A stretch of DNA of 49,092 nucleotides from assembly GCA_022822085.1 (NCBI GenBank), contig JAJECK010000006.1, positions 1 to 49,092 of the forward strand, read 5' to 3'. Source of the stretch: Candidatus Poribacteria bacterium (GTDB lineage: Bacteria > Poribacteria > WGA-4E > WGA-3G). The translations under genes and the position numbers were made by a program. The notes below the pieces were generated by a model, which made no database searches, was not told where the DNA came from, and saw only the letters and a program-made list of their open reading frames with translations. Positions 5,019 through 48,955 of the stretch are shown here, piece by piece. Position 1 is the first letter of the stretch. Each line of letters opens with the position of its first letter.

Positions 5019-5056
5019 ACATTAAAGAGAAAATTGCGTGAGATACATTGAGAAAA

Positions 5057-5428
5057 ATGAGAACATGGCGCGAATGTCTTATTGAACAAATTAGTGACAG
5101 GAAAAGTGCAATCGCTTATCTGCAGGCGATTCTTGAAGACTATCAAATTTACAAAAATCCTGCTGTCCTTCAAAGATCGCTCCGAACCGTCGTTGAAGCA
5201 CAAGGTGGAGTATCTGAACTTGCAAAGCAGATAGATATGAACCCACAAATTCTTTCAAAAATGATCTCTAATGAGGATGTCCCTTTGATTGACGCACTCG
5301 GAATTGTTCTTAAGGCACTTGGACATCAACTCTCAATTCAACCAATAAAATTGGAAAACCGTACCCCTGACACGTATACCGATGCGTTAGATCGGCAAAA
5401 CACATCGGCACAGGTTGCGGAAAATTAA
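5057..5428 (+). CDS. HTH antidote-like DNA-binding protein (HI1420/HigA-type)
   Basis: 123 residues from ATG 5057; a TTG at 5048 would add three residues. The N-terminal segment (LQAILEDYQIYKNPAVLQRSLR) and the helix-turn-helix GGVSELAKQIDMNPQILSKMIS match the layout of HI1420-family addiction-module antidotes, where an AYLNxAL-like lead precedes a Cro-type HTH, followed by LGIVLKALGHQLSI. No RelE/HigB-like toxin is adjacent, so it is an orphan or a stand-alone regulator. It sits 38 bases after moaA and 40 bases before sufC, so it could be transcribed with either and might regulate the suf genes (inference). Confidence 0.75.
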   Translation: MRTWRECLIEQISDRKSAIAYLQAILEDYQIYKNPAVLQRSLRTVVEAQGGVSELAKQIDMNPQILSKMISNEDVPLIDALGIVLKALGHQLSIQPIKLENRTPDTYTDALDRQNTSAQVAEN

Positions 5429-5468: not shown

Positions 5469-6278
5469 ATGAGCAATGAGTTGGTAATAAAAGATTTACA
5501 CATCAGCGTACAAGGAAATGAGATCATCAAAGGATTAGATATAACCGTTAAACCGGGAGAAGTACATGCACTTATGGGACCGAATGGGTCCGGTAAAAGT
5601 ACACTCGCCTACGGATTGATGGGACACCCTTCTTATGAAATAGACTCTGGTGAAGTAATCTTCAATGGTGTTGATGTGTTGGAGTTGGAACCGAATGAAC
5701 GCGCGAAATTAGGATTATTTCTCGCTTTTCAATATCCGACAGTAATCCCTGGTGTCAGTTTAGCGAATTTCCTTCGAACCGCAGTCAGTGCTGTCCGTTC
5801 ATCGGAAACGAACGGTTCTGAAAACCCCGAACTAATTCCGATGCGTGAATTCCGTAAAGAACTGCGCGAAAAGATGACACAACTTGATATGGATGAGTCC
5901 TTCGCAAGACGGTATCTCAACGATGGATTCTCTGGCGGTGAGAAAAAACGTGCCGAAATCCTGCAGATGGCGATGCTTGAACCCAAAATCGCTGTGCTTG
6001 ACGAAACCGACTCCGGGCTTGATATTGACGCTGTCCGTATTGTCGGTGAAAGCGTGAATAGTTTGGTTGGACCTGAACTCGGTGTCTTGATTATCACACA
6101 CTATCCGAGGTTGTTAGACTACATTCGTCCGCAGCATGTACATATTCTACTTGATGGTAGGATTGTTGAATCGGGTGGATATGAACTTACACAGGTGTTA
6201 GAAGCAGAAGGCTACGATCCAATTCGTGAAAAACATGGCATTGAAGAAACTAGTCAAATTGAAGAAGCCGTTCAATAA
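5469..6278 (+). CDS. sufC: Fe-S cluster assembly ATPase SufC
   Basis: 269 residues. ABC-type ATPase of the SufBCD scaffold, which builds Fe-S clusters in the cytoplasm. Walker A is GPNGSGKST (37-45). The signature motif is FSGGEKKRAE, Walker B is IAVLDETDSGLD, and the H-loop is LIITHYPR. The region between Walker A and the signature (LFLAFQYPTVIPGVSLANFLR) is characteristic of SufC. It is the first gene of the suf locus here, but its partner sufB lies 6.3 kb downstream behind three WD40 genes. The 3' end of the gene (from about base 6061) is present a second time at 11921-12096. Confidence 0.95.
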   Translation: MSNELVIKDLHISVQGNEIIKGLDITVKPGEVHALMGPNGSGKSTLAYGLMGHPSYEIDSGEVIFNGVDVLELEPNERAKLGLFLAFQYPTVIPGVSLANFLRTAVSAVRSSETNGSENPELIPMREFRKELREKMTQLDMDESFARRYLNDGFSGGEKKRAEILQMAMLEPKIAVLDETDSGLDIDAVRIVGESVNSLVGPELGVLIITHYPRLLDYIRPQHVHILLDGRIVESGGYELTQVLEAEGYDPIREKHGIEETSQIEEAVQ

Positions 6279-6417
6279 GTTTACAGTAAAGTCTAAAATA
6301 CCTGGACATTTTCTTTTAGTTTTGTAATGTTTGTAGTTGCGCAATTCATTTTACGCTCTAGATAGACCCAGAATGCATTGACATGACTTGTACCAAACTA
6401 TAGCCAGGAAGTACTAC

Positions 6418-8451
6418 ATGAAAAAGGCGTTGTTTAAGGTCACTTTACTTATCTGCTTAGCATTCATTGTTTGGCAGCTGCGTATTGCCTCAAATTTAGA
6501 TCTGAGTTATTCGGAGTCTGTTATTCATGATTCTCCACAAGTACATCTGCCTGAAGGTGTGAAATTTCGGCTTGGTAAAGGCAAGATGCAACAGATAGCA
6601 CATTCTCCTAACGGCTCTTTGTTAGCAGTCGCGACTCCAATTGGTGTGTGGATTTATGATATAACCAATACTGATAAAAATTCTCTATTACTACCGCATA
6701 CATCAAGCATTGAATGCATTGCGTTCAGTCCAGATGGACAGACAATCGCAAGCGGAAGTGAGGACAATATTATTCGCTTATGGAGTGTTGACACTGGCAC
6801 GCAAAAGCAAACTTTTATAGGTCATATCCATGAAATATATACTATGGTATTCAGTCCGGATGGGGAAACACTCGCAAGTGCCAGTATCCATGAGATAAAT
6901 CTGTGGGATATGAACACGGGGACACACAAACAAACATTCCGACAGAATGCACGATCTATTTCTCGTATGATGTTCAACACGAATGGGTTGACACTGGCAA
7001 GTGTCAACGGGGATATCATTCAGCTGACCGATATTGTTACTGGAAAGCAGAAACACACTCTCAAAGGACATACAGAATCAGTTAGAAGGGTGTCATTTAG
7101 TCCTGATGGAAATACCTTTGCGAGTGTAGCTATGGACAAAGGAATCCATTTGTGGGATGTCAACACTGGTGAACAAAAGAGAACACTTAAAGGATATAAA
7201 AATATAATTAAAGACATTACATTCAGCCCAGATGGAAAAACAGTCGCTGCCGGAAGTTGGGATGATAACATCTATATTTGGGATGTTGAAACTGGAAGAC
7301 ATAAGAGAACATTAAAAGGACATAAGTCATCTGTTTATCATTTGTCTTTCAGTGCAGATGGAAAAACGCTCGCAAGTGGGAGTACAGATGGGACTATTCG
7401 TTTGTGGGATGTCAACTCAGACGAGTATAAAACAGTGTCTACAGGACATATTCAAAATGCTCAACAAATATGGTTTAGTCCAGACAGCAAAACACTCGTT
7501 AGTCGGAGTTTTGGAGAAATACACTTGTGGGATGTCAACTCAGGAAAACATAAGAAAACACTTGAAGGACATAAGAAACGTGTTGCTGGTTTTGCGTTTA
7601 GTCCAGATGGAAAAACTTTCGCTACTGGAAGTGACGACAAAACAATTCATATATGGGACGCAGATTCGAGCTTATCCAAAAAGGTTCTTGTAGGACATAC
7701 GGAGGGGATTTATTTCCTAACCTATAGTCCAAACGGGAAAATACTCTTGAGTTTGAGCGGGGACAAAACAATCCGTCTATGGGATGCAGACACGGGTGCA
7801 CATAAACATACCCTTATAGGACATACTGAATCTATTAGAAGTGTTTCGTTTAGTCCAGATGGAAACACCATTGCCAGTGGGAGTTACGATAAAACTGTTC
7901 GGTTATGGGATGTTGAAACTGGCACTCACAAGCAAACCTTCACAGGACACACGTCTGATGTTAGGAGCATATCATTCAGTCCAGATGGAAACATCTTGGC
8001 AAGTGGATCAAAGGACAGTGTCATCCGCTTGTGGAATGTCAACACGGGGCAATCCACACAAATACTTACGGATGATAAGAATAGTTATTTTAGTGTGATG
8101 TTTAGTCCAGGTGGAAAAACACTTGCAAGTTACAATAAGACTGATGTTCAATTGTGGGATGCTATTACGTGGAAACCCAAAAACACGCTCAAAGGACATA
8201 CATATAATGTTGATGGCATTGTATTTAGTCCAGATGGAAACATGCTTGTCAGTGCCAGTTGGGATAGAACCATACGCCTATGGGACGTTAAAACCGGAAC
8301 GCTCATGAAAGTTCTGGAAGGACACAGGTCTATCGTTGACGATATAACGTTTAGTCCGGATGGACAGACCCTTGCAAGTGCAAGTGCGGACGGCACAGTG
8401 CTTTTGTGGAACCTAATGTCTACATCAGATGCTACAAACAGTAATTATTAG
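6418..8451 (+). CDS. WD40-repeat protein 1, membrane-anchored or secreted (15 repeats)
   Basis: 677 residues from ATG 6418, chosen for the AGGAAG ribosome site 7 bases upstream and because the protein then starts MKKALFK. An upstream TTG at 6388 is open but poorer. The N-terminus is a hydrophobic signal anchor (VTLLICLAFIVWQL). About fifteen WD40 repeats follow, each ending in LWDV/IWDA and containing FSPDGKTLASGS, enough for two seven- to eight-bladed propellers. There is no catalytic domain. It probably acts as an extracytoplasmic protein-binding scaffold. It is inserted between sufC and sufB and has no evident link to Fe-S assembly. The first repeat (AVATPIGVWIYDI) is the same cap seen in the next two genes. 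Confidence 0.88.
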   Translation: MKKALFKVTLLICLAFIVWQLRIASNLDLSYSESVIHDSPQVHLPEGVKFRLGKGKMQQIAHSPNGSLLAVATPIGVWIYDITNTDKNSLLLPHTSSIECIAFSPDGQTIASGSEDNIIRLWSVDTGTQKQTFIGHIHEIYTMVFSPDGETLASASIHEINLWDMNTGTHKQTFRQNARSISRMMFNTNGLTLASVNGDIIQLTDIVTGKQKHTLKGHTESVRRVSFSPDGNTFASVAMDKGIHLWDVNTGEQKRTLKGYKNIIKDITFSPDGKTVAAGSWDDNIYIWDVETGRHKRTLKGHKSSVYHLSFSADGKTLASGSTDGTIRLWDVNSDEYKTVSTGHIQNAQQIWFSPDSKTLVSRSFGEIHLWDVNSGKHKKTLEGHKKRVAGFAFSPDGKTFATGSDDKTIHIWDADSSLSKKVLVGHTEGIYFLTYSPNGKILLSLSGDKTIRLWDADTGAHKHTLIGHTESIRSVSFSPDGNTIASGSYDKTVRLWDVETGTHKQTFTGHTSDVRSISFSPDGNILASGSKDSVIRLWNVNTGQSTQILTDDKNSYFSVMFSPGGKTLASYNKTDVQLWDAITWKPKNTLKGHTYNVDGIVFSPDGNMLVSASWDRTIRLWDVKTGTLMKVLEGHRSIVDDITFSPDGQTLASASADGTVLLWNLMSTSDATNSNY

Positions 8452-8543
8452 GATAGATAGAATGGACAATTAATAAATGTACTTTACTTACTGACACAAA
8501 ACCGTACTGCTACACTATGAATATTTCAACTGGTGCTCTTCAC

Positions 8544-10814
8544 ATGAAAAAAGTGTTGTTTTTGATCTTTGTATTTTCAATGGTATATATACCACCCAAT
8601 TTTGCCCAGGACTACACCCAATGGGAGTTGCCAGAGGATGCCATTGCGCGGCTGGGTAAAGGACGTATCAATGCTATGAAGTATTCTCCGGATGGTACTG
8701 TGTTTGCAGTAGCGACAACAATCGGTATTTGGTTATATGATACCGATACCTATCAGGAGACAGCATTACTTGCACGGAATAATAATGGAGTTGTGAGAAT
8801 AGTATTTAACCCTGAAGGAAGTATCCTATCCAGTGGGGAACATTATAATGGCATAACACTATGGGATGTTAGTGCACAGAAGTTGATGAAGACATTTCAA
8901 AAGGGTTCTGCTATGTACCACGGTATGTATTTCAGTTCAGATGGACAAACATTTGCCCATGCAAGCCATAAAGAGATATATCTATATGATATAGTTACAG
9001 GAGAGGACAAACATATTCTCAAAGGGGATCAGGATTTTATCACCAGTATATCGTTCAGTCCTGATGGTCAAACCCTCGCGAGTGGTAGTATGGACAAGAC
9101 AATCTATCTATGGGATGTTGACACAGGAGCACACAAGCAAACCCTAAAAGGACATTCAGAGGAAGTTACCAGTGTTTCATTCAGTCCAAATGGAAACACG
9201 CTCATAAGTATTAGCAAAGATATGACCATCTATTATTGGGATATATCTACAGGAGAACGAAAAAAGACACTTGCAGACAATGGTCTAATTACCGATCAGC
9301 TTGATAAACCAGAAACAGTAGAAAGAGTATCTTTTAGTCCGGATGACAACATACTTGCAACTATAAGATTCAACAATACGATTCGCTTATGGGATACAAC
9401 TACCGGAACACTCATCCAAACTTTTCTCAGTCAGGATACAGATAAACAAGAAAAAGACTATTCGAAAAACATAAAAGGCGTGTTTTTTAGTTCTGACAAT
9501 CGGACAGTTGTAGGTTTAACTGGTGGAGGGAATGTTCGTATATGGGATGTTGCCTCAGGTCAGCGAAAAAGCCTACTTGAAGATCCTGGTTATGTCAGAA
9601 ATGTATACTTTTCTCCAGATGGGAAGACACTTGCGACAGGTATATATGGAGGAATAATCCATTTATGGGACGTTGACACGGGTAAACACAAGAAGACAAT
9701 TTCCAATCTAAGTACAAGTTATTATAGAATGTACGAACACGATTTCAAACCGTTTAGTCCAGATGGAAAAAAGTGCGTTTTTGGAAATACTTCCGGGACC
9801 GTTTACTTATGGGATGTAGTCACAAAACAGGAACTGTCACTTTCAGGAATGAACTATAACTCTAAAGAATTTCCGTATAATACACGTGCTATAATCAGTC
9901 CTGATAGCCAAACATTAGCAAGTTGGCAAACACACGAAGATATGAATATTCGTCTCTGGGATATCGCCTCTGGCAAACACAAGCGAACCCTTAGAGGACA
10001 TAAGGCACGTGTCAAGACTGTTATTTTCAGTACGGATAGTAGCATGATGGCAAGTTGGAGTGCGGAAGGTGATACAACTATTCGGTTATGGGATGTTGTA
10101 ACTGGTAGGCATAAACGAACTCTAAAAGGACATACAAATTGGGTTGAAGATGTCTCATTCAGTCCGAATGGGAAAACACTCGCAAGTGGAGGATTAGATG
10201 GAATAATCCGTATATGGAATACGGAGACAGGCAAACAGGGACAGGCTTTCATGGAAAATAGTTTTGCTAACGATCTGGCCGCGCAGTCTGCAGCGGTTAC
10301 CGTTGTAATGTTTAACTCTGATGGGAATGTGCTTGTGAGTGGTCATAAAAACGGTTCTATCCGACTATGGGATATGATGGACACAGGGAAAGTTATACAA
10401 ACGCTCAGAGGACATGCGGATGCTGTTTCTTCTATATCCTTCAGTCCTGATGGGAAAACCTTAGCAAGCACGAGTAAAGATGCTACTGCACGATTGTGGG
10501 ATGTTGACTCAGGTGAACAGATATATGCCCTTGCTGGATATGATAGGACTACGTGGCGTGTGTTCTTTTATCCTAATGGTTTACCTTTAGCAACTGGGTT
10601 TCAACATCTGAGCAGCCATGATCATGATAAGGACATACGCCTATGGGATTTGCGTACAGGACATCTTATTAAAACACTTACCGGACACACAGCGTGGGTG
10701 GTAAATAGTGGCTTTAGTGGTGATGGAAATACCCTTACAAGTCTAAGTTTTGATGACACAGTCCTTCTATGGGACCTAACACCAACAATTAATGCATTAG
10801 ATATTTCAGAATAA
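8544..10814 (+). CDS. WD40-repeat protein 2, secreted (about 16 repeats)
   Basis: 756 residues from ATG 8544. This start gives a clean signal peptide (MKKVLFLIFVFSMVYIPPNFA); an ATG at 8517 would add nine residues. The mature protein opens with the same cap as its neighbours (AVATTIGIWLYDT) and carries about sixteen WD40 repeats. Several are irregular, with insertions between blades (for example around LSSHDHDKDIRLWDL near the end). It belongs to a tandem family with WD40 genes 1 and 3, in the same direction and separated by 92 and 64 bases. Its binding partners are unknown. Confidence 0.87.
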   Translation: MKKVLFLIFVFSMVYIPPNFAQDYTQWELPEDAIARLGKGRINAMKYSPDGTVFAVATTIGIWLYDTDTYQETALLARNNNGVVRIVFNPEGSILSSGEHYNGITLWDVSAQKLMKTFQKGSAMYHGMYFSSDGQTFAHASHKEIYLYDIVTGEDKHILKGDQDFITSISFSPDGQTLASGSMDKTIYLWDVDTGAHKQTLKGHSEEVTSVSFSPNGNTLISISKDMTIYYWDISTGERKKTLADNGLITDQLDKPETVERVSFSPDDNILATIRFNNTIRLWDTTTGTLIQTFLSQDTDKQEKDYSKNIKGVFFSSDNRTVVGLTGGGNVRIWDVASGQRKSLLEDPGYVRNVYFSPDGKTLATGIYGGIIHLWDVDTGKHKKTISNLSTSYYRMYEHDFKPFSPDGKKCVFGNTSGTVYLWDVVTKQELSLSGMNYNSKEFPYNTRAIISPDSQTLASWQTHEDMNIRLWDIASGKHKRTLRGHKARVKTVIFSTDSSMMASWSAEGDTTIRLWDVVTGRHKRTLKGHTNWVEDVSFSPNGKTLASGGLDGIIRIWNTETGKQGQAFMENSFANDLAAQSAAVTVVMFNSDGNVLVSGHKNGSIRLWDMMDTGKVIQTLRGHADAVSSISFSPDGKTLASTSKDATARLWDVDSGEQIYALAGYDRTTWRVFFYPNGLPLATGFQHLSSHDHDKDIRLWDLRTGHLIKTLTGHTAWVVNSGFSGDGNTLTSLSFDDTVLLWDLTPTINALDISE

Positions 10815-10878: not shown

Positions 10879-12096
10879 GTGAAATTCAATAAACGCACAT
10901 TATTCATAATTCTTGGAGCAATATTTGTTATGCTCTGTATATTTTTTTGGCTAAGCGTTGTTAGAACTGTTTATCAACGCGAGAGAAGCCTTCACGAATC
11001 ACAGCAGAAACACCCCCCAGAGGATAGTGTCAAAGATTTAGAATTCTCTCCAGATGGGAGAGTATTAGCAGTTGCGACTCCTATTGGGATTTGGCTCTAT
11101 GATACGTCTTCGTATGAAACTATTGAGTTGTTGACAGGGGATAAGTATGGTATCTCAAGTATCTCGTTTAGTCCGGATGGGAAAACGCTTGCGGGAGGTG
11201 GTTCAGATAAAATCGTCTACTTATGGGATTTCCGGACAGGTAAGCGTAAGCAGTCATTTATAGGACATAAGGGAAACATATTTAATGTGTCGTTCAGTTA
11301 TAATGGAAAAACACTTGCAAGTGCCAGTATACATGAAACCAATCTGTGGGATACTACTTCTGGTATACACAAGAAAATGTATAATGGATATACTGATAGG
11401 AGATCTACGTTATGGCTCAATAACGATGAAATGATCCATGCATCTGCAAATGGAACAATGGCTCTCTTGTCAGACCTTATGACAAGAGTGGTAAAGATGG
11501 GGCTTGGTGGACATAAGAAAAGTGTGAAAAGTATATCATTCAGTCCTGATGGAAAGACCATGGCGAGTGGAAGTTATGATACAACTATACGGTTGTGGAA
11601 TCTTCCCAAGGGATTATATAAGAAAACGTTCAAAGGACATAAGAAAAGTATCAATAGCATGGATTTTAGTGCAGATGGTAAGTTACTTGCGAGTGCCAGT
11701 CGTGATGATACCGCTCGCGTATGGGATGTTGAAACAGGCAAACTCAAGCGAACATTTAAAGAACATACTGCTGATGTTCAGCACGTAGCACTCAGTCCTG
11801 ACGGGAAAACACTTGCAAGTTGGGGTTTAGATCATATTCTTTATATATGGGATGTTGAGACAGGCAAACTCAAGAAATCTATCACAGAACATATCGCCCC
11901 TATCGGTCATATATCATTCAGTTCGGTTGAACCTGAACTCGGTGTCCTGATTATTACGCACTATCCGCAGTTTGTGCATGTTCTACTTGATGGTAGGATT
12001 GTTGAATCGGGTGGGTGGGAACCCACACAGATGTTAGAAGCAGAAGGTTATGATTCAATTCGTGAAAAACCTGGCATTGCTGAAGCTGTTGAGTAA
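10879..12096 (+). CDS. WD40-repeat protein 3, truncated and fused to a SufC C-terminal tail
   Basis: 405 residues from GTG 10879, with ribosome site AAGGGAG 9 bases upstream. An N-terminal membrane anchor (LFIILGAIFVMLCIFFWL) is followed by seven WD40 repeats. The eighth stops after HIAPIGHISFSS. The reading frame then runs without break into VEPELGVLIITHYP and about 55 residues that match the end of SufC (LLDGRIVESGG, LEAEGYDxIREKxGI). The tail lacks the ATPase Walker A and signature motifs, so it cannot hydrolyse ATP. About eight residues of the SufC tail after THYP are deleted. An incomplete propeller plus an ATPase fragment suggests a recombination relic. Whether the protein folds is unclear. 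Confidence 0.85.
   Translation: MKFNKRTLFIILGAIFVMLCIFFWLSVVRTVYQRERSLHESQQKHPPEDSVKDLEFSPDGRVLAVATPIGIWLYDTSSYETIELLTGDKYGISSISFSPDGKTLAGGGSDKIVYLWDFRTGKRKQSFIGHKGNIFNVSFSYNGKTLASASIHETNLWDTTSGIHKKMYNGYTDRRSTLWLNNDEMIHASANGTMALLSDLMTRVVKMGLGGHKKSVKSISFSPDGKTMASGSYDTTIRLWNLPKGLYKKTFKGHKKSINSMDFSADGKLLASASRDDTARVWDVETGKLKRTFKEHTADVQHVALSPDGKTLASWGLDHILYIWDVETGKLKKSITEHIAPIGHISFSSVEPELGVLIITHYPQFVHVLLDGRIVESGGWEPTQMLEAEGYDSIREKPGIAEAVE
11921..12096 (+). repeat. Second copy of the sufC 3' end (fusion tail)
   Basis: This stretch aligns with 6061-6278 of sufC. It shares, for example, the identical run TTGATGGTAGGATTGTTGAA and its flanks, with scattered substitutions and two in-frame gaps. Copy 1 ends the true sufC and copy 2 ends WD40 gene 3, so the three WD40 genes are bracketed by a direct repeat of the sufC tail. 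Confidence 0.9.
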
Positions 12097-12163
12097 ATAA
12101 TATAAGAGTAGGAATACAAAATAGCAACTCCTAAAACGCACAAGAGCTAAAAGGAGATACACA

Positions 12164-12546
12164 ATGAAAACTATCCTATTTCTCTCAGTCATCTTTTGTG
12201 CAATCGCGTTACCAGTTTTTGGTGACTTAACAGATACTGATCTCAACAGAATTCGATTGATTATCAATGAGGAGATTGGGAGGCAATTAAGCCGATAAAA
12301 GCCGATATCGTAACCCTACAAACAGATGTTGCATGGATACAAGGCAAACTTGAAAACGTTGGTAAACAGATCACACATTTAACCTATATCACTTATTTCC
12401 TGTTCACACTCATAGTGGCAGCTATAGTAATCCCGCAAATATTAACCTTATGGCGAAGCGTAACGGATAATTCATTAGAAAAACGAGTTAAAACGCTGGC
12501 ACAGGAAATAGAAACGCTAAAGCAACAACGAATTGTTAACCCTTGA
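12164..12546 (+). pseudogene. Frameshifted small secreted/membrane coiled-coil protein
   Basis: ATG 12164 has a good ribosome site (AAGGAG) and encodes a signal peptide (MKTILFLSVIFCAIALPVFG) followed by LTDTDLNRIRLIINEE, stopping at TAA 12296-12298 after 44 codons. From about 12289, in the -1 frame, an open frame continues as KPIKADIVTLQTDVAWIQGK, a membrane segment (YFLFTLIVAAIVIPQIL) and a C-terminal coiled coil, ending at TGA 12544-12546. The two halves join into one sensible protein of about 126 residues: export signal, coiled coil, TM helix, coiled coil. I infer a single gene broken by a small indel in GATTGGGAGG. An assembly error cannot be excluded. It lies between the WD40 fusion gene and sufB. 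Confidence 0.7.
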
Positions 12547-12584: not shown

Positions 12585-14003
12585 ATGGCAACCCCAGAAA
12601 CGCAACAACTTGACGATATGGGAATCAGTAAAGACTACAAATACGGATTCCACGATGATGTAAAGCCAACGTTCAAATCCCGAAAAGGTTTGGACGAAGA
12701 GGTCATCAATCAGATGTGCGACATCAAAGAAGAACCCGATTGGATGCGCGAGTATAGACTTAAGGCTTACGAAATCTTTAAACAGAAACCCATGACGAAA
12801 TGGGGTGGCGATCTATCGCAACTCGATTTTGACGACATCTATTATTATGTTAAGGCATCTGACCGAAGCGAACGGAGTTGGGACGATGTGCCGGAAGACA
12901 TCAAGAAAACCTTTGACCGCCTCGGTATACCGGAAGCCGAACGTAAGTTCCTTGCTGGTGTCGGCGCACAATACGATTCCGAAGTCGTCTATCACAACCT
13001 CGTTGAAGAATTGGACAAAATTGGCGTCGTTTTCGTTGATACGGATACTGCTGTCAAAGAATATCCTGACCTCATGAAAAAATACTTCGGAACGATTATT
13101 CCGTCTGCAGATAACCAATTCGCTGCACTGAATAGTGCTGTCTGGAGTGGTGGCAGTTTCATTTATGTCCCTCCCGGTGTGAAGGTTGACTATCCGTTGC
13201 AGGCATATTTCCGAATCAACAGTGAAAACATGGGACAGTTTGAACGCACGCTTATTATTGCAGACGAAGGTTCACAGGTGCATTATGTTGAAGGTTGCAC
13301 TGCACCAACGTTCAGCAGCGAATCCTTGCATAGTGCCGTTGTGGAAATTATCTGCATGAAAGGTTCACGGGTGCGATACACAACTATCCAGAACTGGGCG
13401 GGGAATGTCTACAATCTCGTTACCAAACGTGCAGTTGCTTATGAAGACGCACAGATGGAATGGGTTGATGGTAATCTCGGCAGTAAGTTGACGATGAAGT
13501 ATCCCAGTGTCTATATGATGGAACCGGGTGCCCGCGGAGAAATTCTCTCCATTGCGTTTGCAAGCAAAGGACAGCATCAGGATGCAGGTGCTAAAGTTTA
13601 CCATTGCGCGCCACACACCACCTCACAGATTACGTCGAAGTCCATCAGTAAAGATGGCGGACGTTCCAGTTATCGAGGTTGGGTTGATGTCGCAAAAGGC
13701 GCGAAGGGATGCAAATCTCACGTCGTTTGTGATGCGCTCCTGCTTGACAAGGAATCGCGTTCAGATACCTATCCTGTCATTGAAATCAATGAAAACGATA
13801 CCAACATTGAACATGAAGCGCGTGTCAGCAAAATCGGTGAAGAGCAACTCTTCTATCTGATGAGTCGTGGATTGTCCGAAGAAGAAGCATCCACTATGAT
13901 TGTCAACGGGTTTATTGAGCCACTTGTCAAAGAACTTCCGATGGAATATGCTGTTGAGATGAACCGACTCATCCAACTTCAGATGGAAGGTTCAATCGGA
14001 TAG
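12585..14003 (+). CDS. sufB: Fe-S cluster scaffold protein SufB
   Basis: 472 residues from ATG 12585, which follows an excellent AAGGAGGAATAC ribosome site; a TTG at 12543 is open but unlikely. SufB is the cluster-building scaffold of the SufBC2D complex. Family hallmarks are the N-terminal [26 protein letters not shown], the beta-helix core with [19 protein letters not shown] and [19 protein letters not shown], and the C-terminal [20 protein letters not shown]. It is 13 bases from sufD, forming a tight pair. Core residues look intact despite the rearranged upstream region. Confidence 0.96.
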
Positions 14004-39694: not shown

Positions 39695-40117
39695 ATGGTT
39701 GAGGTAAAAGTCGACTATATCTCTACAGATAAGAATACTGGCACACAAGTAGTTATTCTTGAACAGATATGCGGTGATCCTATACACAGATTAATGATAT
39801 GGATCGGAGAATCTGAAGCGGCAGCAATTAGTACGTTTTTAGATAAGAAATCTACTCCGCGTCCAATGACTCACGATCTGCTCAAGAATATTGTTGATAC
39901 TCTTTCAACCACTGTAAATGCTGTCCATATCACTAAAGTTGAAGAGTCAACCTTTTATGCAAAGATGAGTCTAAAAACAGACACACAAGAAATCTCCATA
40001 GATTCGCGTCCAAGTGATGCAATTGCTGTTGCTATTCGATGTAATGCCCCAATTTATGTAGATGATGATGTTTTAGAAAATCACGGCTTCCTTGAAAAGG
40101 AGAATCAAGATGGTTGA
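39695..40117 (+). CDS. Bifunctional nuclease (BFN/DUF151) family protein 1
   Basis: 140 residues with one DUF151 domain. Hallmarks are LMIWIGESEAAAISTFLD, PRPMTHDLLKNIVDTL and the terminal SRPSDAIAVAIRCNAPIYVDDDVLE. Members of this family have been reported to degrade DNA and RNA, and some act in plant and mycobacterial regulation. A GGAG site lies 9 bases before the ATG. Its last eight bases overlap the second copy, so the two are translationally coupled paralogues from a tandem duplication. Confidence 0.9.
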   Translation: MVEVKVDYISTDKNTGTQVVILEQICGDPIHRLMIWIGESEAAAISTFLDKKSTPRPMTHDLLKNIVDTLSTTVNAVHITKVEESTFYAKMSLKTDTQEISIDSRPSDAIAVAIRCNAPIYVDDDVLENHGFLEKENQDG

Positions 40118-40604
40118 AGTAAATATTGAATTTGTCACTATTGATCGAAACTCGCGCACCCCCCTCGTTGTATTGAAAGAAAAGAAAGGCGATTCAAAAC
40201 GGATATTGCTGATTTGGATTGGTGAATCCGAAGCGTGGGCAATAGAAAACCAACTGAAAAAGTTATCGCCACCCCGTCCCATCACGCATGATCTACTGAA
40301 AAATGTGATTGACACATTTTCTGGTAAGGTGAATTCTGTTTGTATTACTGCCATTGAAGATTCTACTTTCTATGCAGAGGTGACTCTTGAATTGAATGGA
40401 AAGACATACGAATTAGATTCTCGGCCGAGTGATGCACTTGCGCTTGCAGTCCGATGTGAAGTGCCAATTTATGTTGAGGAAAAGGTGATAGAAGAAAACG
40501 GATTTCTTGAAGCGGAAGTGAAAAAAGAAAAACCCACGAAACGCGATGCTAAAGATGTGTTGGAAAATCTGGACGATGATATTGCTAAACATTATACTGT
40601 TTAG
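40110..40604 (+). CDS. Bifunctional nuclease (BFN/DUF151) family protein 2
   Basis: 164 residues from ATG 40110, behind AAAGGAG; an in-frame upstream extension to 40092 is less likely. The DUF151 core matches its neighbour: LLIWIGESEAWAIENQLK, PRPITHDLLKNVIDTF, SRPSDALALAVRCEVPIYVEE. The C-terminal tail (KKEKPTKRDAKDVLENLDDD) is charged and extends beyond the domain. The pair suggests a heteromeric complex, since DUF151 proteins are multimers (inference). Confidence 0.9.
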   Translation: MVEVNIEFVTIDRNSRTPLVVLKEKKGDSKRILLIWIGESEAWAIENQLKKLSPPRPITHDLLKNVIDTFSGKVNSVCITAIEDSTFYAEVTLELNGKTYELDSRPSDALALAVRCEVPIYVEEKVIEENGFLEAEVKKEKPTKRDAKDVLENLDDDIAKHYTV

Positions 40605-48837: not shown

Positions 48838-48955
48838 ATTATAGTAATATCTAAAAATATGTTCACACTTCAATGTACAACTTATCTCACCACCCACTGC
48901 TGGCGAGGTTTCCTAACCTCGCCAATGTCCAGGTAATTGTTGACTTTACTATAAT
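48838..48955. mobile_element. MITE-like element, type A, copy 2 (118 bp)
   Basis: Ends ATTATAGTAATATC and GACTTTACTATAAT match copy 1 at 29104-29220 with a few substitutions, and the interior shares AAATATGTTCA, TTCAATG and the central hairpin GGCGAGGTT-TCCT-AACCTCGCC (48902-48923). It has no coding capacity. Confidence 0.82.

What the first reader, a model, noticed from the sequence alone, without database searches (positions are those of the whole stretch)
11921..12096. WD40 protein fused in frame to a duplicated SufC tail; WD40 block bracketed by a direct repeat of the sufC 3' end
The last of three WD40 genes stops mid-blade and continues in frame into about 55 residues of the SufC C-terminus. 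The true sufC ends just before the first WD40 gene. The block is therefore flanked by about 175-218 bp direct repeats, as if a circle or duplicated segment carrying WD40 genes integrated by homologous recombination at the sufC tail, or a tandem duplication occurred there. It created a chimeric open frame with an ATPase tail lacking ATP-binding motifs.
Basis: seen in the sequence. Interest (0 to 1): 0.72.

Follow-up and report, generated by a model that had tools for sequence, protein, structure and literature searches.

The report
WD40 block scar inside suf operon
In a sponge-associated Poribacteria genome, a block of WD40 (beta-propeller) genes has moved into the middle of the iron-sulfur-cluster (suf) operon and left a duplicated stump of the sufC gene joined in frame to the last WD40 gene; it is a real and old recombination scar seen in two species, not a new functional protein domain.

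Summary
Window 11920-12096 is a second, in-frame copy of the sufC 3' end, fused after codon 348 of the third WD40 gene. The true sufC tail (6060-6278) lies just before the first WD40 gene. The genome is Candidatus Poribacteria. The fusion is not an assembly accident: a second species (G014, contig C136) has it at the same junction. In related species wdA-wdB-wdC form a cluster elsewhere, between a Gfo/Idh-type and a TIM-barrel gene, and wdC ends in a normal last repeat. In the window genome those flanks hold no WD40 genes.

The join shows imperfect microhomology (AGTTYGGWTGGAC, 11 of 13 bases). Copy 2 and what follows it (a sufB-start remnant, a small pseudogene, sufB) match the resident arrangement of relatives without WD40 there. 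Copy 1's extended C-terminus plus a 70-bp miniature-transposon fragment are shared only with the two other species carrying WD40 genes at suf. The fused tail is decaying and is predicted to lie outside a complete seven-bladed propeller. I read it as a relocation scar at sufC. The exact route (circle or allele recombination versus one-step insertion) is unresolved.

The parts
5469..6278 (+). sufC, complete; its last part 6060-6278 is repeat copy 1, with an extended C-terminus (EETSQIEEAVQ)
6282..6350 (+). fragment of an interspersed miniature inverted-repeat element (full copies about 144 bp), directly after the sufC stop
   Evidence: repeats in many genus genomes with a fixed end; aligned copies; inverted ends
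6388..8451 (+). wdA, WD40 protein with N-terminal membrane segment or signal (ATG start more likely at 6418)
   Evidence: orthologs in G009, G015, G014, G016
8517..10814 (+). wdB, WD40 protein
10879..12096 (+). wdC::sufC-tail chimera: residues 1-348 WD40, 349-405 SufC-derived
11918..11935 (+). junction with imperfect microhomology AGTTYGGWTGGAC shared by native wdC and sufC
11926..12096 (+). repeat copy 2 of the sufC tail, 24-bp in-frame deletion at about 11967/11968
12107..12140 (+). broken copy of the sufB ribosome-binding site and start (ATG to ATA)
   Evidence: similar remnant in G017
12164..12546 (+). small-gene pseudogene (stop and frameshift); intact 127-aa relatives lie between sufC and sufB in other species
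12588..14003 (+). sufB, complete

Best explanation
This is a recombination scar. The segment wdA-wdB-wdC(1-348), which in related species belongs to a WD40 cluster between a Gfo/Idh-type dehydrogenase gene and a TIM-barrel gene, was relocated into the sufC-sufB interval of an ancestor. Its right end was joined to the sufC coding sequence at an imperfect 13-bp microhomology, giving wdC::sufC-tail in frame. In the window the block sits between two sufC tails: copy 1 completes sufC and carries the block-type C-terminus and the miniature-element fragment; copy 2 is the resident sufC end, cut off from its gene and still followed by the resident sufB-side sequence. This is the layout that crossover in the sufC tail would give, whether the block came as a circle or as a foreign allele. 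The chimeric frame arose by accident: the propeller is predicted complete without the tail, and the tail is decaying. Shown: the repeat, the junction in two species, the alternative location of the cluster, resident-type sequence after copy 2, the changes in the tail. Inferred: the order of events and the crossover route.
For: Repeat and junction. Same junction in G014. Native cluster elsewhere with intact wdC end. Flanks of the native site hold no WD40 genes in the window genome. Block absent at suf in most of the genus. Microhomology 11/13 in codon phase. Copy 2 end GIAEAVE and its downstream sequence are resident-type (G001, G017), while copy 1's extension and element fragment are shared with G014 and G016. 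Copy 2 has 5 unique altering and 0 unique silent changes plus a deletion, against 9 and 18 in sufC genes together; G014's tail is cut elsewhere. Tail pLDDT under 50, seven full blades without it.
Against: Tail trees do not reject copies 1 and 2 as sisters (p-AU 0.32), and dS between them is low (0.28), which would fit a duplication within one lineage. No circle and no empty-site sister strain was seen. The species order is poorly resolved. The native cluster may have been lost from the window genome independently, and contig gaps there could hide genes.
Confidence: 0.72

Rival explanations
1. One-step insertion with target duplication in one lineage (template switching): DNA synthesis left sufC, copied wdA-wdB-wdC', then jumped back into sufC at the microhomology and re-copied the tail. 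Both tails were identical at birth and differ now only by later change, copy 1 gaining its extension later.
For: Needs only two novel joins; microhomology at one of them; dS between the copies is the lowest for either copy; sister copies not rejected.
Against: Copy 2's C-terminus matches another species' sufC (G001) and copy 1's matches G014/G016, so the two look like different alleles; the best tail tree pairs copy 1 with the G014 chimera (88/79) and copy 2 with G001 (70/41).
Confidence: 0.35
2. Tandem duplication of sufC-tail-wdA-wdB-wdC' after the WD40 genes were already at suf, the second unit later lost in the window and partly kept in G014.
For: G014 has sufC, wdB, wdC::tail, wdA, wdB, sufB, as expected from a partly deleted tandem array; an exact sufC-tail tandem repeat exists in G020.
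Against: In the wdB tree the G014 copies and G016 group together apart from the window copy (100/100), so the duplication looks younger than the chimera, unless copies were homogenised; the window keeps no second wdA.
Confidence: 0.2
3. A functional fusion: the SufC tail is a useful new end of a WD40 protein or couples it to the Suf machinery.
For: Frame open in two species; the WD40 part is under constraint (dN/dS 0.32).
Against: No Walker A, signature or Walker B in the tail; radical changes and no silent ones unique to copy 2; different truncation in G014; disordered in the model; one other genome of 58.
Confidence: 0.04
4. Assembly artefact joining two repeats.
For: The genomes are draft assemblies, WD40 genes are repetitive, and no reads could be mapped here.
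Against: The two copies differ by 12-14%, and another species shows the same junction in its own contig.
Confidence: 0.02

Closest known systems
Campbell-type integration or allele exchange by homologous recombination at a gene's 3' end
   Same: The interrupted gene keeps a complete 3' end and a second, displaced 3' end lies at the far border of the inserted block.
   Different: No circle or donor seen; the displaced end is fused in frame to a cargo gene; later decay and rearrangement blur the event.
Integrase-driven islands that insert in gene 3' ends and restore the gene (general knowledge)
   Same: Gene end restored, displaced end at the other border.
   Different: The block holds only wdA, wdB and wdC, no integrase; the repeat is about 170-220 bp of coding sequence, not a short att core.
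Microhomology-mediated duplication or insertion joins
   Same: Imperfect 13-bp shared sequence at the join.
   Different: Two tail types in the window suggest an added homologous step.
Poribacterial WD40 repeat proteins (PMC3909097)
   Same: WD40 (pfam00400) is reported as highly abundant in Poribacteria; wdA, wdB and wdC are ordinary members.
   Different: The passages of that paper read here do not describe WD40 genes inside the suf operon or fused to SufC.

Membership tests
WD40 beta-propeller protein (wdC part) | WD40 repeats by profile | tested here: met
   PF00400, 169 bits, four stretches passing
WD40 beta-propeller protein (wdC part) | Closed propeller fold | tested here: met
   Seven four-stranded blades, residues 53-335, in a model from a shallow alignment; best PDB match a 7-bladed propeller, 7bie
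SufC ABC ATPase (chimera tail) | Walker A, ABC signature and Walker B | tested here: not met
   Copy 2 starts after them (at SufC VGPELG...); the PF00005 match of the true SufC, residues 21-180, lies wholly before the tail
SufC ABC ATPase (chimera tail) | Sequence constraint typical of SufC | tested here: not met
   5 altering and 0 silent unique changes and an 8-residue deletion in copy 2
Integrase-driven island at a gene 3' end | Site-specific recombinase in the block | tested here: not met
   The block encodes three WD40 proteins only
Insertion by homologous recombination in the sufC tail | Two alleles of the tail, donor-type and resident-type | tested here: inconclusive
   C-terminal types differ and match different relatives, but tail trees are not decisive
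Insertion by homologous recombination in the sufC tail | Empty sister site or a circular form | not testable with these tools
   No strain-level or read data held
Microhomology-mediated join | Short shared sequence at the breakpoint | tested here: met
   AGTTYGGWTGGAC, 11 of 13 bases, same codon phase

The most novel reading that the evidence does not exclude
The sufC-sufB interval is a preferred landing site in this genus: WD40 genes and other small genes of sponge symbionts enter a conserved operon there and are exchanged between species by recombination in the sufC tail and in repeats of the sufB start, a homology-driven cassette site without an integrase.
Probability: 0.12. Interest if true: 0.5.

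Novelty: new member of a known kind. Interest (0 to 1): 0.27.

Why it matters
It is a well-preserved example of how a chimeric reading frame arises and begins to decay: native parents, junction, a second species and rearranged relatives are all visible. It warns annotators that a 'WD40-SufC' architecture here is a scar, not a domain combination. The sufC-sufB interval as a recurrent insertion site in sponge-associated Poribacteria is a testable side lead.

Tried and rejected
Chance similarity: rejected. Assembly error: unlikely, same junction in G014. A conserved domain family: 58 other family genomes searched, one chimera. Phage or plasmid origin of wdC: no phage match, only WD40 matches under 60% identity in plasmids. 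A general habit of displaced gene tails: a scan of 849 kb, including WD40 loci from many of the genomes, for gene tails duplicated without their gene gave clear cases only at the suf loci of the window and G014; the other six hits were shorter or weaker (35-71% identity), some of them adjacent paralogs; this scan covers a small part of the genomes. The apparent match to residue 386 in the complete chromosome OX639973.1 is WD40 sequence, not a SufC tail. Tail phylogeny to decide donor versus resident: inconclusive. No paper on poribacterial miniature elements was found.

Full report
WHAT IS THERE. The window is a contig of a Candidatus Poribacteria genome (relatives named). The suf region reads sufC (5469-6278), then three co-directional WD40 genes wdA, wdB and wdC, then sufB (12588-14003) and sufD. 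wdC (10879-12096) runs in frame from WD40 repeats into 57 residues of the SufC C-terminus. The two sufC tails are 86-87% identical in two gap-free blocks separated by a 24-bp deletion in copy 2, and a BLASTN search of the genome finds no third copy.

WHAT FOLLOWS THE SECOND COPY. Directly after copy 2 there is a damaged copy of the sufB ribosome-binding site and start (12107-12140; its ATG is ATA), then a small gene broken by a stop and a frameshift (12164-12546), then sufB. In G017 sufC is followed by the same kind of sufB-start remnant and an intact small gene; G001, G004, G006, G009 and G010 also have members of this gene family between sufC and sufB. Copy 2's last residues, GIAEAVE, equal those of sufC in G001. 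So copy 2 and everything to its right look like the resident suf locus.

WHAT FOLLOWS THE FIRST COPY. The complete sufC ends in an extended C-terminus (EETSQIEEAVQ) matched closely by G014 and G016 (EETGQVEETVQ); G012 has an ending of the same length but different sequence. Directly after its stop lie about 70 bp (6282-6350) that recur dozens of times in other genomes of the genus and nearly always end at the same base. Aligned copies show a miniature inverted-repeat element of about 144 bp with ends TATAGTRAAA...TTTCACTATA. The window, G014 and G016 share this fragment at this place.

WHERE THE WD40 GENES COME FROM. In G015 wdA-wdB-wdC are followed by two more WD40 genes and lie between a Gfo/Idh-type gene and a TIM-barrel gene (gene names by resemblance). 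G009 has the same three genes in the same order, and G011 and G002 show wdB-wdC. In G009 and G015 wdC finishes its last repeat (FSSDGLMLASADGTVLFWD) and stops at 377 aa. In the window genome the Gfo/Idh gene and the TIM-barrel gene lie on other contigs with no WD40 gene near them in the sequence fetched. Most species of the genus have no wdA-wdB-wdC at suf. The block at suf is therefore most simply derived.

A SECOND SPECIES HAS THE SAME JOIN. G014 contig C136 carries complete sufC, wdB, wdC::sufC-tail with the identical join, then wdA up to the contig end. Contig C95 appears to continue with the rest of wdA, then wdB and sufB. There the tail runs about 30 residues and passes into the wdA leader. 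G016 has sufC, wdA, wdB, sufB. In the wdB tree the suf-located copies form one clade (96/99), with G014's two copies and G016 nested together (100/100). The wdB-sufB join of G014 and G016 abuts a sufB leader of the small-gene type, so these two look derived from a window-like form by duplication and deletion. That last step is inference.

THE JOIN. Native wdC reads TTCAGTTCGGATGGACTT and sufC AATAGTTTGGTTGGACCT; the chimera reads TTCAGTTCGGTTG(A/G)ACCT. Eleven of 13 bases are shared and the codon phase agrees, so the open frame needs no selection to explain it.

IS THE TAIL A DOMAIN? Probably not. Of the changes unique to copy 2 against 18 sufC genes of the genus, five alter an amino acid and none is silent, whereas the sufC genes together show 18 silent and 9 altering unique changes. 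Eight residues were lost, and G014's tail is cut at another point. AlphaFold2 on a shallow seven-row alignment gives seven complete blades (residues 53-335), with residues 340-405 under pLDDT 50. The WD40 part is still constrained (dN/dS 0.32 between the two chimeras). The protein probably still works as a membrane-anchored propeller, like its relatives, with an inert tail; what these propellers bind is not known.

MECHANISM. The best-supported account is relocation of a WD40 segment to the sufC tail, with one join at microhomology, and a window layout in which the block lies between a block-type and a resident sufC tail, as crossover in that tail would give. A one-step insertion with target duplication is a serious rival. 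Tail trees lean towards two tail types (copy 1 with the G014 chimera, 88/79; copy 2 with G001, 70/41) but do not reject a common origin (p-AU 0.32), and dS between the copies is low (0.28). Independently, G020, in another family of the order, has an exact 389-bp tandem repeat of the sufC 3' end without any insert, so duplications at this point recur, if that assembly is right.

HOW SPECIAL IS IT? A scan of 849 kb for gene tails duplicated apart from their gene found clear cases only at these suf loci. The chimera occurs in one other genome out of 58 of the family. WD40 proteins are known to be abundant in Poribacteria (PMC3909097).

VERDICT. A real, well-documented recombination scar of a known kind.

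Noticed in passing
window 6282-6350; further pieces at 48924-48953 and 48840-48859: Interspersed miniature inverted-repeat element, about 144 bp with about 28-bp inverted ends; at least 40 copies in G017 and 23 in G005, few in the window genome. Its transposase was not sought.
   Followed up: partly
sufC-sufB interval in L019, L022, L024, L027, L028, L035 and window 12164-12546: Recurrent insertion of a small-gene family (127 aa, LKQQRIVNP end) and of other genes between sufC and sufB, in the window and G017 with a broken repeat of the sufB start before it.
   Followed up: partly
L037 (G020), sufC 3' end: Exact 389-bp tandem repeat of the sufC 3' end with a possible CAACGA microhomology at its join.
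   Followed up: partly
L048 (G011) and L049 (G002), wdC: The relocated gene's native orthologs in two species carry a TGA stop near codons 344-349, close to where the chimera joins SufC, so the end of wdC may be dispensable or prone to change.
   Followed up: no
window 39695-40114 and 40290-40517: Two adjacent related coding stretches (55% identical), perhaps tandem bifunctional-nuclease-like genes; name from memory, not tested.
   Followed up: no
window 5048-5428: Short gene between moaA and sufC with a weak, below-cutoff match to an addiction-module antidote family (PF21716), present in several relatives and missing or reduced in others.
   Followed up: no
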